Positions 24,359 through 33,096 of a stretch of DNA of 46,236 nt are shown piece after piece (the first letter of the stretch is position 1; every line of letters begins with the position of its first letter). Below the pieces are notes generated by a model. That model was not told the DNA's origin, searched no databases, and saw only the letters and a program-made list of their open reading frames with translations. Both the position numbers and the translations under genes were made by a program. The DNA comes from Promethearchaeota archaeon (GTDB lineage Archaea; Asgardarchaeota; Lokiarchaeia; Helarchaeales; RDOG01), in the NCBI GenBank assembly GCA_011365055.1, contig RDOG01000027.1:1-46236 (forward strand), in the 5' to 3' direction.

Positions 24359-25171
24359 ATGAGACCATTATGGTTGGTAAAAATTTTCAAAAGTGCATAT
24401 AGAAATAGGAATATAATGTTTAGAATGACGAGGTTACCGATTATTGGGAGATTAATTGCTAAAGGATTGGAAGAAGATGCTTTAATTTGTTTACCGAAAG
24501 ATAATGTCATTAAAGTTAATGAATCGTTGGATTTACCAAATCAAACAGTATTACCATCTCAAATTGTTGAATATTTCATTAAAAAAGCAAGCCATAGATG
24601 GATAATGAATTTTTGTATTTGTAGAACATCAAATGAATGTAAAAATTATCCAAGGGAACACGGATGCTTATTCTTAGGAGAGGCTGTATTAAAAATTAAT
24701 CCAGAATTTGGAAAGCTCGTTAGTGTTGATGAAGCATTAGAATACGTGAAAATTTGTAGAGAAGAAGGTTTTGTTCATTTCATTGGAAGAAATAAATTGG
24801 ATGAACTCTGGCTTGGTGCAAATCCGGGAGAAAAATTGCTAACCGTGTGTAATTGTTGTCCTTGTTGTTGTATTTCTGGTGGAATTAAATACATGGCAGA
24901 TGAATTCAGAGACAAATACTCAAAAATGTCTGGCGTGGAAGTCAAGGTTGATAGAAATAAATGCGTAGGATGTGGTTCCTGTGAAAAAATATGCATTTAT
25001 GATGGGATTTTTGTCGTTAAGGAGAAGGCTGTCATTCTAGAAGATAAATGCATGGGCTGTGGAAGGTGTGTCTCACAATGTCCGAAAAAAGCAATTAGCT
25101 TGACTTTAAATGATAAGGAATTTCTTGAAAAATCTATTCAAAGGATTTCAAAATACGTAGATATAGAATAG
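24359..25171 (+). CDS. Cys-rich protein with C-terminal dicluster ferredoxin
   Basis: The last 70 residues form a 2[4Fe-4S] ferredoxin: CVGCGSCEKIC (202-212) and CMGCGRCVSQCP (231-242). Ahead of it lie two unusual Cys groups, CICRTSNEC...C (86-103) and CNCCPCCC (164-171), which could bind another cluster or a metal. The first 35 residues are basic and mildly hydrophobic (WLVKIFKSAYRNR) and may attach to a membrane. Electron transfer with a coupled substrate or metal centre is the likely role; the partner is not visible. No clear Shine-Dalgarno precedes the ATG. It stands alone. Confidence 0.7.
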   Translation: MRPLWLVKIFKSAYRNRNIMFRMTRLPIIGRLIAKGLEEDALICLPKDNVIKVNESLDLPNQTVLPSQIVEYFIKKASHRWIMNFCICRTSNECKNYPREHGCLFLGEAVLKINPEFGKLVSVDEALEYVKICREEGFVHFIGRNKLDELWLGANPGEKLLTVCNCCPCCCISGGIKYMADEFRDKYSKMSGVEVKVDRNKCVGCGSCEKICIYDGIFVVKEKAVILEDKCMGCGRCVSQCPKKAISLTLNDKEFLEKSIQRISKYVDIE

Positions 25172-28997: not shown

Positions 28998-29693
28998 TTA
29001 TTTATTTGGATTAATGGTCAAAACGAAGGATTCGTTTCTAATAACGTAATCTATTTTACAATTTTTAAATTCTTTTAAAAATTCGGAAAAATATTCGCTC
29101 CAAAATTCACCGTATCGCTTACTTCGTAAATTATGATAAAAGAACATCACATATATTCCTTCTTTACTTTTTTCAATTACTATATTATTAAAATAATTTC
29201 CTGCAAGCCATAATGCTTTAATACCATCTAGAACTTCTTTTAAAGATAATTCTGTTATAGTTTTTCCAGTATACCATTCTAAGATATCCACTGCTACATT
29301 TTCTTTAAATGCTCTCTTATAATCACCAGAAATATATGCTAAAAAAGTAGTTTTACCTACAGAAATCATATCTAATTCATTACGAAATCGCATCCAAATA
29401 TTTGAAGCCTCATCTTTTTGTGGATTTTGAAATTTTTCATATAATTCTAAAGCATCATCTATGATGTCTTTACCTGATTCAAAATAACTATCAGTATCTT
29501 GTACTTTTTCAAATAATTTAAGAGCATTTTCAATTATTTTTCTTTTGGTTAATAATTTCTTCTCTTCATCCCTTTTTTTTGAAAATTTTTCAAGAATATC
29601 TCTTGCTTCTGCAGATATAGTAGTGTGTATTACAATTCTTTCTTTTTTCTCTGTTTCTTTTTCTATTTCTTCACCCATTTTCTCATCACTCAA
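28998..29693 (-). CDS. RHH-like N-terminus with unknown C-terminal domain
   Basis: Residues 18-62 have a strand, IVIHTTISAEA, followed by helices, as in a ribbon-helix-helix DNA-binding fold (RDILEKFSKK, then TKRKIIENALKLFEKV). A second short helix copy, IIDDALELYEKFQ, follows at about 76-88. Residues about 95-231 form an alpha/beta domain (MISVGKTTFLAYISGDYKRAF, then VAVDILEWYTGKTITEL, then GIYVMFFYHNLRSKRYGEFW) that I do not recognise. A regulator with a ligand-binding domain is a fair guess, but not shown. It is the only minus-strand gene in its neighbourhood. Confidence 0.5.
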   Translation of the reverse strand: MSDEKMGEEIEKETEKKERIVIHTTISAEARDILEKFSKKRDEEKKLLTKRKIIENALKLFEKVQDTDSYFESGKDIIDDALELYEKFQNPQKDEASNIWMRFRNELDMISVGKTTFLAYISGDYKRAFKENVAVDILEWYTGKTITELSLKEVLDGIKALWLAGNYFNNIVIEKSKEGIYVMFFYHNLRSKRYGEFWSEYFSEFLKEFKNCKIDYVIRNESFVLTINPNK

Positions 29694-29870: not shown

Positions 29871-30251
29871 ATGGTGGAAAATGTAAATAAAAAAGAATTA
29901 AAAAATAATAATAATAAAATTAAAGTATTTAAAAATACATTTGGATTTATTTTAAAAGTATTTTCTGGTTTTACATTGATTTTAGCGATACCAATCGGAT
30001 TTGAGATTTTCAAAATTTTTCAATTAAATATTCAAGTTTTTTACTCATCAATAAGTATTATATTGTCTCTGATTATTTGTATGTTGATAATTGCTTTCTT
30101 TAAAATACTAAAAAGCCAAGAGTTAATTCAAAATTTGGATTACGAAAAATATGCAAAATCACTTGATATAAATAATATAAATCATTCAACTAAAACTTCA
30201 GAAATAAATAATGATTATTTTTTTGAAAGAAATCATTTAATACAACATTAG
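29871..30251 (+). CDS. membrane protein with two helices, upstream of the DUF2207-like gene
   Basis: This 126-residue protein has a basic, Asn-rich N-terminus, two hydrophobic helices (about residues 25-48 and 56-80) and a polar C-terminus. It starts at an ATG behind GGAG and ends 15 nt before the DUF2207-like gene, so they are probably one transcript and may work in one membrane complex. No family was recognised. Confidence 0.55.
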   Translation: MVENVNKKELKNNNNKIKVFKNTFGFILKVFSGFTLILAIPIGFEIFKIFQLNIQVFYSSISIILSLIICMLIIAFFKILKSQELIQNLDYEKYAKSLDINNINHSTKTSEINNDYFFERNHLIQH

Positions 30252-30266
30252 AGGTGAATATGTAAA

Positions 30267-32024
30267 ATGAGAAGAGGGAAAAACCTATTTTTATTTATAT
30301 TTGTGTTATTTTTTCTTTTTATTTTTAGTAGTATTTTTACTTCTTTAAATTCAAATAAAAATACTAAACCTTTAGAACAACTTGGCCTTACAACAAAAGC
30401 AACTACACGAGTTACTAATTATGTCATAACCATGCAAATATCAGGAAAAGACTTGATTACTCAAATAAATATTACTTATTTTGTAAGCTCAGGAACGAAA
30501 TATGACGGTTTTAAAAGATTTGAGTATCCATATTTCACCACGGGCCATATTGATGAAAATACAATAAATGTTTATGATGATTCAGGTAACGAACTTTTTT
30601 GGGACTTTTTTATTTCCTCCTCCAAGTTCCCCAATAAATACTATGAACTTTATTATCGTACGGGAGGATTTTCAGGAGAAAAGACTGTAAGTTTGAATTT
30701 TATCATGAGAAATTGGATAATTGAATCATTTATTTATTCTAAGATTGAATTAAGGAATTTTGGAACGTTCGGAATAGCAATTGATAGATTGGAATGTAAT
30801 TTAATTTTTCCAGAGGGATTTAATCCTATTTCCGTACTTTTGGATGTGAAAAAAGACACATCAATAATTCAAAAGAATGGTAATAGATATGTTTACACGT
30901 TAATTCAAACTGGATATAATATTTCAGATGATTTAATAATTACATTCTTCCCTCAGAATACATTTTTTCTTCCTCTATTGCTATTATTTTCATGCATCCC
31001 ATTAATAGTAATCTTATATCAACGAAAGATCTTAAAAAAGAAATTTTTAGAAGATGAAACCCCTGTAAAATATTCAAAAATAACTAAGTATACACCTGCA
31101 GAAATAGCATACATTACTTATGAAGCCTTTCCCAAACAAATTAGAATGTCAAAAATGATTCAGGCAACTCTTATTGATTTAGTTGCAAACGGAGATGCAA
31201 TATTTTCAAAAAGTAATTCATCATTATTAATAAGTAAAACTAATCCACATTCTGAATATTTAGATTCTTTCTCTAAATACGTTTTAAATATTTTATATAA
31301 TGCAACTAGTGAAAAACTTGAAGATTTGCTTGAGAAAAAATATCATGATTTTATGAAAATCGAGGAACTAGTACAATTCAGTTTGAGTGAAAAAAAAGTA
31401 TTAAAAAATAATAGAACAAATCGATTAAGAATGGCCTTAATTTCTTTTTGTGAACTTATAATGTTCTTTACATTGTTTGGCCTAAATTATGTTTTTGCAG
31501 TTGGTGACCTATTCTGGATATTCCTTAATATTGCTATATTAATAATTGTTGGATTTATTTACTTTAAAGAAATTATGAAAGGCAAATATTTCTTTACATT
31601 AAAAGGGAAGGAATTTCAGAGAATAGTGAACCAAGATATAGAAACTCTCAAAATTCAACTTGAATCAATGTTTTTTAACGAACCATCTCTTGAAGTCATT
31701 TATAATGCCTACCAAAGTTATATTGGATATATATCATTAAACGACACCTTCTCATATAAAACTTGGATTGAGGGGTTATGTGAAGAATATATTGCTAAAA
31801 ATCCAAATTCTAAGGAAAAGGAGAATAAAAGAAATATTCTTTTAATATTTGGACAACATCAAGAGATTCTTTCAACCATTAAAGAACAAATGGTACATTT
31901 CAGACCACCACCAACCTATGATGCTTGGGGAGGTTGTGGAGGATGGGGCGGTTGCGGAGGAGGAGGTTGCGGAGGAGGCGGTTGTGGTGGTGGTGGTTGC
32001 GGGGGAGGCGGTTGTGGAGGTTAG
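30267..32024 (+). CDS. DUF2207-like membrane protein with Gly/Cys-repeat C-terminus
   Basis: This 585-residue membrane protein has a hydrophobic N-terminal helix (about 8-25), an extracellular beta-rich domain (about 45-230), then helices at about 232-251, 388-410 and 413-434 with a cytoplasmic domain between. This is the layout of DUF2207 proteins. The cytoplasmic end (544-550) is RPPPTYDAW, then a poly-Gly tail with six Cys at 557, 563, 568, 573, 578 and 583. After the first Cys-to-Cys gap of six residues, the spacing is exactly five. A radical SAM/SPASM gene begins 7 nt after the stop. DUF2207 proteins often end in Gly-rich tails; the regular Cys ladder is the notable feature. SD GAGGTGA lies before the ATG. 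Confidence 0.8.
   Translation: MRRGKNLFLFIFVLFFLFIFSSIFTSLNSNKNTKPLEQLGLTTKATTRVTNYVITMQISGKDLITQINITYFVSSGTKYDGFKRFEYPYFTTGHIDENTINVYDDSGNELFWDFFISSSKFPNKYYELYYRTGGFSGEKTVSLNFIMRNWIIESFIYSKIELRNFGTFGIAIDRLECNLIFPEGFNPISVLLDVKKDTSIIQKNGNRYVYTLIQTGYNISDDLIITFFPQNTFFLPLLLLFSCIPLIVILYQRKILKKKFLEDETPVKYSKITKYTPAEIAYITYEAFPKQIRMSKMIQATLIDLVANGDAIFSKSNSSLLISKTNPHSEYLDSFSKYVLNILYNATSEKLEDLLEKKYHDFMKIEELVQFSLSEKKVLKNNRTNRLRMALISFCELIMFFTLFGLNYVFAVGDLFWIFLNIAILIIVGFIYFKEIMKGKYFFTLKGKEFQRIVNQDIETLKIQLESMFFNEPSLEVIYNAYQSYIGYISLNDTFSYKTWIEGLCEEYIAKNPNSKEKENKRNILLIFGQHQEILSTIKEQMVHFRPPPTYDAWGGCGGWGGCGGGGCGGGGCGGGGCGGGGCGG
31932..32021 (+). repeat. Gly/Cys pentad repeat encoding the membrane protein tail
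   Basis: The 15-bp unit encodes four Gly and one Cys and recurs through the last coding 90 bases. The Gly codon just before each Cys is always GGT, the Cys codon is TGT or TGC, and the other Gly codons vary freely. This mixture shows the peptide pattern is kept by selection rather than by DNA slippage alone. It is a sharply GC-rich island in AT-rich sequence. Confidence 0.9.
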
Positions 32025-32031
32025 TATCTGA

Positions 32032-33096
32032 TTGATATCTTCAGAATGTGAAATATCAAGTAGAATGAGTGCTTGTGAAGGGCTCATTCGACCTTGTTTT
32101 TTTTTACAATTGCATATTACGCCTTTTTGTAATTTACGATGTATTCATTGTTATCAAGAATTTGAATCTGAAAAAGAGAAAAAACTTCTCACGAAAAATG
32201 AAATTATAAATTTGATTCACCATTATTATCGCTTTTTAAGAATTCAAGATCATTCGGGAACCATTTATCTAACAGGAGGCGAACCGACAATAGATCCAAA
32301 CTTGTTAGATTATGTAAAGGAAGCAAAACGCCTTAGAATTTTTCCCATGATATTAAGTAATGGTACATTAATTGACAGCAAATTTGCATTTAAATTAAAG
32401 GAAGCAGGAACAGGAATCGTTCAAATTAGTCTGGATGGATTAAAGCATACCCATGATGAAATTCGTGGGAAGGGAAACTTCGATAAAGCAACTCGAGGAT
32501 TAGATGCATGTCGACAAGCTGGATTAAAAACTATTGTCATGTTCACTTTACATAAATTGAATGCAAATGAAATGGAAGATGTAATTTCACATTGCATAGA
32601 ACATGGAGTAAAACGGTTTGCTTTTCACAGATTGGTTCCTGTAGGACGTGGTTCACAATTATTTAATGAAATTTTTAGACCTGAAGAATTAAAAGAATTT
32701 TTTAAAAAAATCAGAAAGTGGAAAAATAGATATAGAAATTTTATAGAGGTCACTGCACATGATCCGTTGTGGCAGAGATTTTTGGGTATGTCACATCCAT
32801 TTGGATGTTGTATTGGAAATAGCGGAATTTGTGTGATGCATAACGGAGATATACTTCCTTGTAGAAGATTAAATAAAGTAATTGGTAATATTAGACAAGA
32901 TAGCTTACATTCAATTTGGAATGGATCCTATCTGCATAAATTTCGAAAAAGAAAAGATTATGAAGGAAAATGTAATTCTTGTATTCATTTTAAAAAATGC
33001 ACGGGTTGTCGGGGGATCGCATACGGAGTCACGGGTTCAGAATTTGGGTCGGATCCTCAGTGTTTTAGCTTTAAAAAAAGGAAAATAATAGATTAA
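32032..33096 (+). CDS. radical SAM/SPASM-domain protein
   Basis: This radical SAM enzyme has the CNLRCIHC cluster motif (Cys33, Cys37, Cys40), the SAM-binding TGGEP (81-85), and a C-terminal SPASM domain with Cys260, 267, 277, 314, 317, 323, 326 and 344. CNSCIHFKKCTGCRG fits the CX2CX5CX2C core of SPASM, which holds two auxiliary [4Fe-4S] clusters in peptide- and protein-modifying enzymes. At 354 residues the protein is complete. The start is TTG at 32032; its ribosome-binding site, GGAGG at 32016-32020, is the last Gly codons of the gene before it, so translation is coupled. Its position strongly suggests the Gly/Cys tail of the upstream protein as substrate, but this is inference; a heme- or cofactor-related role cannot be excluded. 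Confidence 0.85.
   Translation: MISSECEISSRMSACEGLIRPCFFLQLHITPFCNLRCIHCYQEFESEKEKKLLTKNEIINLIHHYYRFLRIQDHSGTIYLTGGEPTIDPNLLDYVKEAKRLRIFPMILSNGTLIDSKFAFKLKEAGTGIVQISLDGLKHTHDEIRGKGNFDKATRGLDACRQAGLKTIVMFTLHKLNANEMEDVISHCIEHGVKRFAFHRLVPVGRGSQLFNEIFRPEELKEFFKKIRKWKNRYRNFIEVTAHDPLWQRFLGMSHPFGCCIGNSGICVMHNGDILPCRRLNKVIGNIRQDSLHSIWNGSYLHKFRKRKDYEGKCNSCIHFKKCTGCRGIAYGVTGSEFGSDPQCFSFKKRKIID

What the first reader, a model, noticed from the sequence alone, without database searches (positions are those of the whole stretch)
30267..33096. Candidate protein-modification system: Gly/Cys tail of a membrane protein next to a radical SAM/SPASM enzyme
A DUF2207-like membrane protein ends in six Cys spaced every five residues in pure Gly, and a SPASM-type radical SAM enzyme starts 7 nt downstream with coupled translation. 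SPASM radical SAM enzymes commonly install thioether or carbon-carbon links in Cys- or Gly-rich peptides, and Gly-rich-repeat peptides paired with such enzymes are known in bacteria. Here the would-be substrate is the tail of a full membrane protein instead of a free peptide. The pairing is seen directly; the modification, its chemistry and its purpose (cluster binding, crosslinked anchor, electron or metal relay) are inference.
Basis: partly seen in the sequence, partly recalled or inferred. Interest (0 to 1): 0.88.

Follow-up and report, generated by a model that had tools for sequence, protein, structure and literature searches.

The report
Membrane-protein Cys/Gly tail with dedicated enzyme
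A probably archaeal membrane protein ends in a string of glycines studded with cysteines, and the gene next to it encodes an iron-sulphur radical enzyme that very probably rewrites those cysteines; the same pairing recurs in distant archaea and bacteria, so it looks like an overlooked way of chemically modifying a whole membrane protein.

Summary
The 585-aa DUF2207-type membrane protein (30267-32024) ends in 24 Gly, 6 Cys and 1 Trp; an intact radical SAM/SPASM gene (TTG 32032 to 33096) follows 7 nt on, with GGAGGT inside the last tail codons. The pairing is conserved. In 227 Asgard genomes 9 of 9 strong relatives of the enzyme have a Cys/Gly-tail gene directly upstream, against 2 of 12 weaker ones; all 9 genuine CGG-stop tails found by a DNA pattern lie at such loci (8 strong, 1 weaker enzyme). 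Thirteen DUF2207 proteins from Asgard genomes without a detected enzyme keep a Gly tail with no Cys. In 245 Nitrospirota genomes 15 of 15 TIGR04222 tail proteins have a radical SAM gene adjacent, joined to it or one gene away. Three of those enzymes are SbtM-type (two scored, both pass TIGR04082); SbtM is the enzyme others showed to turn Cys into thiooxazole. I conclude that the enzyme modifies the tail cysteines of an intact membrane protein. Thiooxazole (-4 Da per Cys) is my first choice, Cys-to-Gly alpha-carbon thioether (-2 Da) second. The modification, metal binding and biological role are not shown. New variant of a known kind.

The parts
30267..32024 (+). 585-aa DUF2207-type membrane protein, the proposed substrate: TM1 about aa 7-25, extracytoplasmic beta domain aa 46-227, TM2 232-250, cytosolic domain, TM3 394-412, TM4 415-433, cytosolic helices to aa 544
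   Evidence: PF20990 36.4 bits, cut-off 33; AlphaFold2 mean pLDDT 79.1, pTM 0.56; hydropathy and positive-inside count; sidedness is inferred
31929..32024 (+). Gly/Cys tail (31 codons plus stop): GGCGGWGGCGGGGCGGGGCGGGGCGGGGCGG
   Evidence: modelled as disordered (pLDDT under 50 for aa 553-585)
32016..32021 (+). GGAGGT Shine-Dalgarno-like sequence made by the last two Gly codons of the tail, 10 nt before the TTG
32032..33096 (+). 354-aa radical SAM/SPASM enzyme (TTG start; alternative ATG at 32065)
   Evidence: AlphaFold2 mean pLDDT 84.6, pTM 0.85; best solved-structure matches SkfB, anSME, SuiB
32128..32151 (+). radical SAM cluster motif C33-X3-C37-X2-C40
32806..33063 (+). SPASM region: C259, C277, C314, C317, C323, C326, C344 (auxiliary Fe-S clusters)
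   Evidence: six of the seven in 21 of 21 tail-associated enzymes, C326 in 20 of 21
29871..30251 (+). 126-aa two-TM protein 15 nt upstream, possibly in the same transcript; no match to it in the 19 related loci compared, so probably not part of the core module

Best explanation
This is a two-gene protein-maturation module. The SPASM radical SAM enzyme acts on the Cys residues of the Gly/Cys tail (predicted cytosolic here) of the DUF2207-type membrane protein encoded just before it, and the modified tail stays attached to the membrane protein. The most likely product is a row of Cys-derived thiooxazoles (each Cys loses 4 H), giving a membrane-tethered soft-metal ligand, an oxygen-independent counterpart of the MNIO-associated tails and of bufferins. 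Shown: gene pair, its conservation, enzyme motifs, and Cys in the tail going with the enzyme gene. Inferred: that the tail is the substrate (about 0.85), thiooxazole chemistry (about 0.45), metal binding (about 0.4). The confidence below is for the enzyme-substrate relation with Cys as the target; the thioether rival shares that relation and differs only in chemistry.
For: Asgard: 9 of 9 enzymes at 300 bits or more, in 9 of 227 genomes, have a Cys/Gly-tail gene directly upstream. Reverse: of 12 stop-terminated CGG..CGG pattern hits, 9 end ORFs of 159 aa or more, all 9 at radical SAM loci; 3 are 16-17-codon chance ORFs. Control: 13 DUF2207_C proteins over cut-off, in genomes where one search found no enzyme at 1e-60, have Gly-rich tails with 0 Cys. 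Nitrospirota: 8 of 8 enzymes at 345 bits or more have a Gly/Ser/Cys-tail gene just upstream, 0 of 22 weaker loci checked; 15 of 15 TIGR04222 proteins found have a Cys/Gly tail and a radical SAM gene adjacent, joined or one gene away. Chemistry: enzymes 55-56% identical to an SbtM lie directly after TIGR04222 tail genes in three Nitrospirota genomes; two were scored and pass (538, 530 bits, cut-off 350). SbtM makes thiooxazole with loss of four hydrogens (PMC11002830 passage). MNIO enzymes are reported beside TIGR04222 tails (PMC12452194 passages) and make thiooxazoles (PMC12538549 passages). Related clades of the enzyme sit beside short Cys-rich peptides.
Against: No chemistry was measured. 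The window enzyme is far below the SbtM (142.8 of 350, seventh of the families listed, behind NirJ2 and AhbD) and ACGX (181.5 of 400) cut-offs, and the SbtM row falls elsewhere in the tree on a long branch, so its chemistry may differ. The Cys-free control proteins are not the same subfamily: one search did not recover the enzyme-adjacent Asgard proteins over cut-off (L003 18.7, L004 26.7 bits), and nine of the 13 are near-copies. Tail context varies: in the last 45 residues of 25 partners Cys is followed by G 97, S 35, other 6 of 138. Topology is uneven: the window protein has four predicted TM segments, but of ten rows from Asgard loci five have an even and five an odd number, and 6 of 8 Nitrospirota rows have five, which would put such tails outside the cytosol, so they would need modification before insertion. 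No metal-handling gene was recognised among the few neighbours scanned. One locus has HemC next to the tail gene. Gene order varies: the enzyme precedes the tail gene in L008, and with one gene between in L014 and L019.
Confidence: 0.8

Rival explanations
1. Sactionine tail: the enzyme takes H from Gly alpha-carbons and joins Cys sulphur to them, giving -2 Da per thioether and a crosslinked, rigid tail. Same enzyme-substrate relation, other chemistry.
For: Gly is listed among sactionine acceptors and streptosactin has two 4-residue rings (PMC8326336 and PMC13361665 passages). The best solved-structure match is SkfB, a sactionine enzyme. Nearly every possible acceptor in the tail is Gly.
Against: Sactionine synthases score lower than SbtM against the window enzyme (SkfB 76.1, StsB 86.6, SbtM 142.8 bits). 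CGG repeats at every third residue leave very small rings. SbtM-type enzymes stand by the same kind of tail.
Confidence: 0.25
2. The tail is an unmodified metal or Fe-S ligand, and the enzyme uses it as electron donor or modifies something else.
For: Cys/Gly runs can bind metals without modification; no modification has been seen.
Against: Tail Cys and enzyme gene go together in both directions in Asgard, and several SPASM subfamilies and, in print, MNIO enzymes sit by the same tails.
Confidence: 0.12
3. The enzyme is a haem-pathway (AhbD/NirJ-like) or other small-molecule SPASM enzyme placed here by chance.
For: NirJ, NirJ1, AhbD and NirJ2 models score 125-168 bits; HemC lies after the tail gene in one Nitrospirota locus with an L177-like enzyme, L278/L292.
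Against: All are far below their cut-offs of 500-650 bits; adjacency to tails is conserved across phyla. Neighbours were annotated only in part, so this is not excluded by a full survey.
Confidence: 0.04

Closest known systems
TIGR04222 (near_uncomplex) membrane proteins paired with MNIO (DUF692) enzymes, PMC12452194 (passages)
   Same: Membrane protein with a C-terminal Gly/Ser/Cys low-complexity tail beside an oxidative enzyme; TIGR04222 matches 5 of 18 of my partner proteins and PF20990 matches 5 of 18
   Different: Enzyme is a radical SAM protein instead of MNIO; the window protein does not match TIGR04222; its tail is predicted cytosolic, in the paper periplasmic. The paper also says a third of genomes with TIGR04222 lack MNIO and over a quarter of these proteins lack C-proximal Cys
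SbtM thio(seleno)oxazole maturase, TIGR04082
   Same: SPASM radical SAM enzyme acting on Cys; in three Nitrospirota genomes an SbtM-type gene stands directly after a TIGR04222 tail gene
   Different: Window enzyme scores 142.8 of 350 and lies elsewhere in the tree; the assayed SbtM substrates were peptides
ACGX system, TIGR04340
   Same: Best-scoring curated family for the window enzyme, aligned end to end; Cys-Gly repeats in the partner seen in L251
   Different: Partner in L251 is a free peptide in a 74-codon ORF; score 181.5 of 400, so not a member; chemistry unknown to me. The other four ACGX loci were not searched further for the peptide
Sactipeptides and ranthipeptides (SkfB, StsB, PapB)
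   Same: SPASM radical SAM, Cys-rich substrates
   Different: Free peptide substrates; lower scores; the window tail lacks acceptor side chains for ranthionine links

Membership tests
SPASM-domain radical SAM enzymes | CX3CX2C motif and SPASM Cys set | tested here: met
DUF2207 | PF20990 C-terminal domain over its cut-off | tested here: met
   36.4 bits, cut-off 33
DUF2207 | PF09972 N-terminal domain | tested here: not met
   no match at E 0.1 for the window protein; 1 of 18 partners matched at E 0.01
TIGR04222 membrane proteins | TIGR04222 score over 43 bits | tested here: not met
   window: no family listed; relatives L191 108.1 and L011 56.8 bits pass, L016 37.9, L004 29 and L003 18.3 do not
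TIGR04340 ACGX enzymes | score over 400 bits | tested here: not met
   181.5 bits
TIGR04082 SbtM | score over 350 bits | tested here: not met
   142.8 bits; the Nitrospirota L290 and L294 enzymes pass with 538 and 530.3
TIGR04082 SbtM | thiooxazole product, -4 Da per Cys | not testable with these tools
   needs mass spectrometry
RiPP biosynthetic cluster | short precursor peptide with leader and core | tested here: not met
   substrate candidate is a 585-aa membrane protein
RiPP biosynthetic cluster | linked protease or exporter | tested here: inconclusive
   no gene shared by the window and more than one of 19 loci besides the pair; neighbours annotated only in part, with peptidase genes near L009 and L011
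Sactipeptide | Cys-S to alpha-carbon thioether | not testable with these tools
   no chemistry available

The most novel reading that the evidence does not exclude
A widespread, oxygen-independent class of protein (not peptide) maturation: radical SAM enzymes convert the Cys of a membrane protein's Gly tail into poly-thiooxazole, giving anaerobic archaea, including relatives of the eukaryote ancestor, a membrane-tethered metal-binding or redox tail; several radical SAM subfamilies and the MNIO enzymes of aerobes arrived at the same substrate independently.
Probability: 0.3. Interest if true: 0.88.

Novelty: new variant of a known kind. Interest (0 to 1): 0.74.

Why it matters
Radical SAM maturation is mostly studied on small peptides. 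Here the evidence points to the tail of an intact membrane protein as the substrate, in archaea and bacteria, and suggests that several SPASM subfamilies, an SbtM-type enzyme of known chemistry and (from the literature) MNIO oxidases serve the same kind of tail. That gives a concrete chemical hypothesis for the TIGR04222/DUF2207 Cys tails, whose role the MNIO paper leaves open, and a direct mass-spectrometric test of it.

Tried and rejected
No genome is held for the window, so its species is unknown; 'archaeal' rests on the closest named relatives of the enzyme (Promethearchaeota). No tRNA or Rfam match helped. The viral-contig scan gave only distant enzymes (best 29% identity) and was not pursued. 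The membrane-protein search (E 1e-5, 7999 candidates scored) found only two relatives, so partner proteins came from neighbours of the enzyme. Third gene: besides the pair, one divergent gene (by eye RHH-like) recurs in one of 19 loci, L001; Ras-like GTPase genes of the window also have homologues in L001; a nucleotidyltransferase-like gene recurs in L290-L294. A peptide beside the SbtM of L247 was sought by reading TGA as U, with no convincing result. The beta domain resembles OST ribophorin and M1-peptidase domains at TM-scores of about 0.25; no function drawn. Ranthionine links rejected for this tail: beyond Gly and Cys it holds one Trp.

Limits of the counts. Searches score few candidates per genome (7-15 in the phylum searches), so 'no match' is not proof of absence. 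The 300- and 345-bit lines were drawn after seeing gaps. The first tail criterion missed L161, L207, L208, L213, which I added by eye; to treat controls alike I reran all with a looser, both-strand criterion: it finds L207, L208 and L213, misses L161 (three Cys) and L176 (cut by the contig end; tail seen), and adds one weaker Asgard locus, L183. Controls L221 and L226 have almost no flank on one side. One search's own control, the pattern read backwards, gave 10 hits against 18, so its value rests on the ORF check, made for 13 of the 18 (all 12 with a stop). In one search the ORF shown is the longest in the locus; for L255-L267 its length agrees, for the seven matches below cut-off it need not be the DUF2207 gene. 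Of the 15 TIGR04222 proteins 11 pass the cut-off; L296's enzyme is cut before the SPASM part and L295 is a locus in which enzyme and tail are joined by a deletion or misassembly. In the Nanoarchaeota search 12 of 279 genomes matched; 6 loci have a Cys-rich peptide upstream, and for the other 6 none was seen. Zixibacteria: 1 of 132 genomes. Trees are quick searches with SH-aLRT only; rows over 360 aa were cut to the last 345; for the second tree I left out long-branch or partial rows (L020-L023, L025, L179, L183, L238, L240, L245, P0020 and any of P0003, P0022, P0023, P0027 present) and nine near-duplicates, so L183 and L179, both inside the larger clade, are not in it.

Literature, all seen as passages only: PMC12452194, PMC11002830, PMC8326336, PMC13361665, PMC12668002, PMC12538549, PMC11291487, PMC13188914 (nothing on this pairing in the passages). 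Lewis 2021 (SbtM) is not held; I know it here through PMC11002830 and PMC12538549. Other listed papers were not opened. That the DUF2207/TIGR04222-radical SAM pairing is not in print rests on searches of one open-access library only. Statements on what ACGX, AhbD, NirJ or SkfB do beyond the names and passages shown are recalled.
Full report
WHAT IS THERE. The window holds a 585-aa membrane protein gene (30267-32024) and, 7 nt after its stop, a 354-aa radical SAM/SPASM gene read from TTG at 32032. The protein ends GGCGGWGGCGGGGCGGGGCGGGGCGGGGCGG. No other stretch in the window comes near: 30 of 32 residues are Gly or Cys, against 10 for the runner-up, in a 29.7% G+C sequence, with mixed Gly codons. 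The last two Gly codons spell GGAGGT, a Shine-Dalgarno-like site 10 nt before the TTG. The protein passes the PF20990 (DUF2207_C) cut-off. Model and hydropathy give an N-terminal TM segment, an outside beta domain, TM2, a cytosolic domain, a TM hairpin, cytosolic helices and the disordered tail, so here tail and enzyme are predicted in the same compartment.

THE ENZYME. The expected Fe-S cysteines are present. No curated family claims it: the best are ACGX (181.5 of 400 bits), NirJ2 and AhbD; SbtM (142.8 of 350) is seventh and the best of those with a peptide chemistry known to me. The model is good (pLDDT 84.6) and its best solved-structure matches are SkfB, anSME and SuiB.

THE PAIRING IS REAL. 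A genome scan for the enzyme brought in loci from Lokiarchaeota, Sigynarchaeota, Thorarchaeota, Njordarchaeota, Zixibacteria, Nitrospirae, Elusimicrobia and others. Of the 19 best loci, 13 have a Cys/Gly-tail gene beside the enzyme, 4 a short Cys-rich peptide ORF upstream, and 2 a TPM-domain protein with a Cys/Ser/Gly tail one gene downstream. In the Asgard phylum 21 of 227 genomes have a match at 1e-60; 9 score 300 bits or more, and all 9 have the tail gene directly upstream. Of the other 12, two (L177 with a TIGR04222 CGG tail, L183 with a Ser/Gly-rich tail ending GGGGCGC) have one and ten have none within the flanks held. The converse search for CGG..CGG-stop gave 18 hits, 6 ending in TGG and 12 in a stop; 9 of the 12 end ORFs of 159 aa or more, in 8 genomes: 8 at the strong enzymes (two in tandem in L003) and 1 at L177; the other 3 are 16-17-codon ORFs. 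The backward-pattern control gave 10 hits, so the ORF check is what carries weight.

THE CYSTEINES GO WITH THE ENZYME. Thirteen Asgard DUF2207_C proteins over cut-off, in genomes where one search found no enzyme at 1e-60, end in Gly-rich tails such as GGGFSGGGGGGGGGGIG with no Cys. A Gly tail is thus a habit of the wider family, and Cys appear where the enzyme gene does. Caveats: nine of the 13 tails are near-copies, and the enzyme-adjacent Asgard proteins score below the same model's cut-off, so the comparison is between subfamilies.

OTHER LINEAGES. In Nitrospirota 8 of 245 genomes have an enzyme at 345 bits or more, and all 8 have a Gly/Ser/Cys-tail gene just upstream; 22 of the 31 weaker hits had loci, and none of the 22 has one. 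Searching the other way with TIGR04222 found 15 proteins in 15 of 245 genomes. Eight are those same loci. The other seven also have Cys/Gly tails and a radical SAM gene: directly downstream in L290, L291, L294 and L296, one gene away in L292 and L293, and joined by a deletion in L295. In L290, L291 and L294 the enzyme is 55-56% identical to an SbtM; two were scored and pass the SbtM cut-off (538, 530 bits). L292 has HemC after its tail gene. In the Zixibacteria search 1 of 132 genomes matched, with the enzyme before the tail gene. In Nanoarchaeota 12 of 279 matched, 6 of them with 56-95-codon Cys-rich ORFs upstream that look like RiPP precursors. Trees put tail-associated enzymes in several clades, with peptide-associated enzymes among and beside them.

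HOW IT LIKELY WORKS. The enzyme acts on the tail's Cys. The composition leaves few chemistries: alpha-carbon thioether to Gly, a Cys heterocycle, or epimerisation. Two lines favour thiooxazole: SbtM-type enzymes stand beside the same type of tail, and SbtM converts Cys to thiooxazole with loss of four hydrogens (PMC11002830 passage); and MNIO oxidases, which make thiooxazoles, are reported beside TIGR04222 tails (PMC12452194 passages; PMC12538549 passages). Against this, the window enzyme is not an SbtM and may differ. A thiooxazole peptide binds Cu(I), so a membrane-tethered metal tail is my guess for the role; no metal-handling gene was recognised among the neighbours scanned and I give it 0.4.

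COMPARISON. It works like a RiPP maturation pair, but the substrate candidate is a whole membrane protein. It is closest to the TIGR04222-MNIO systems with the enzyme swapped. Where the tail ends up is not settled: four TM segments put it in the cytosol in the window protein, but predicted counts are odd in 5 of 10 Asgard-locus rows and five in 6 of 8 Nitrospirota rows; PMC12452194 places TIGR04222 tails in the periplasm. The library searched returned no paper joining DUF2207 with radical SAM, and the MNIO paper has radical SAM only in its references.

VERDICT. Observation confirmed; interpretation supported at the level of genomes; chemistry and role open but sharply testable.

Noticed in passing
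L290, L291, L294 (Nitrospirota): SbtM-type enzymes stand directly after TIGR04222 Cys/Gly-tail genes; a nucleotidyltransferase-like gene (scored in L292) recurs in L290-L294.
   Followed up: partly
L236, L237, L239, L241, L244, L173 (Nanoarchaeota): Cys-rich ORFs of 56-95 codons upstream of a related SPASM enzyme; the gene downstream in L239 scores as a TehB-like methyltransferase and similar ones are seen by eye in others: possible new RiPP family.
   Followed up: partly
L014 2746-3576, L019 8104-9039: TPM-domain membrane proteins with CGSSCGGSSF-type tails, one gene downstream of a related SPASM enzyme in Lachnospiraceae/Clostridia.
   Followed up: partly
L255-L267 (Asgard): DUF2207 proteins with long Gly tails lacking Cys; role of the Gly tail itself unknown.
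   Followed up: partly
L183 1-1494 (enzyme orientation): ORF ending in a Ser/Gly run and GGGGCGC directly upstream of a 219-bit SPASM enzyme in an Asgard genome.
   Followed up: no
L278 88-1110 (-): HemC (porphobilinogen deaminase) follows the TIGR04222 tail gene in this Nitrospirota locus.
   Followed up: partly
L002 5623-6963: Tiddalikarchaeum locus: a short ORF with GGGCGCGCG near its start, whose C-terminal part looks similar by eye to the N-terminus of the enzyme that follows.
   Followed up: no
window 28998-29693 (-): Divergent gene upstream, by eye RHH-like, with a 36% identical counterpart divergently upstream in L001; no Pfam match.
   Followed up: partly
P0020: A related SPASM protein recorded from the amoeba Pelomyxa schiedti; contamination or transfer not tested.
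   Followed up: no
L295 3430-4807: TIGR04222 tail and radical SAM gene joined by a deletion or misassembly.
   Followed up: no
window 24359-25171 (+): 270-aa protein with two 4Fe-4S ferredoxin motifs and a further Cys-rich stretch.
   Followed up: no
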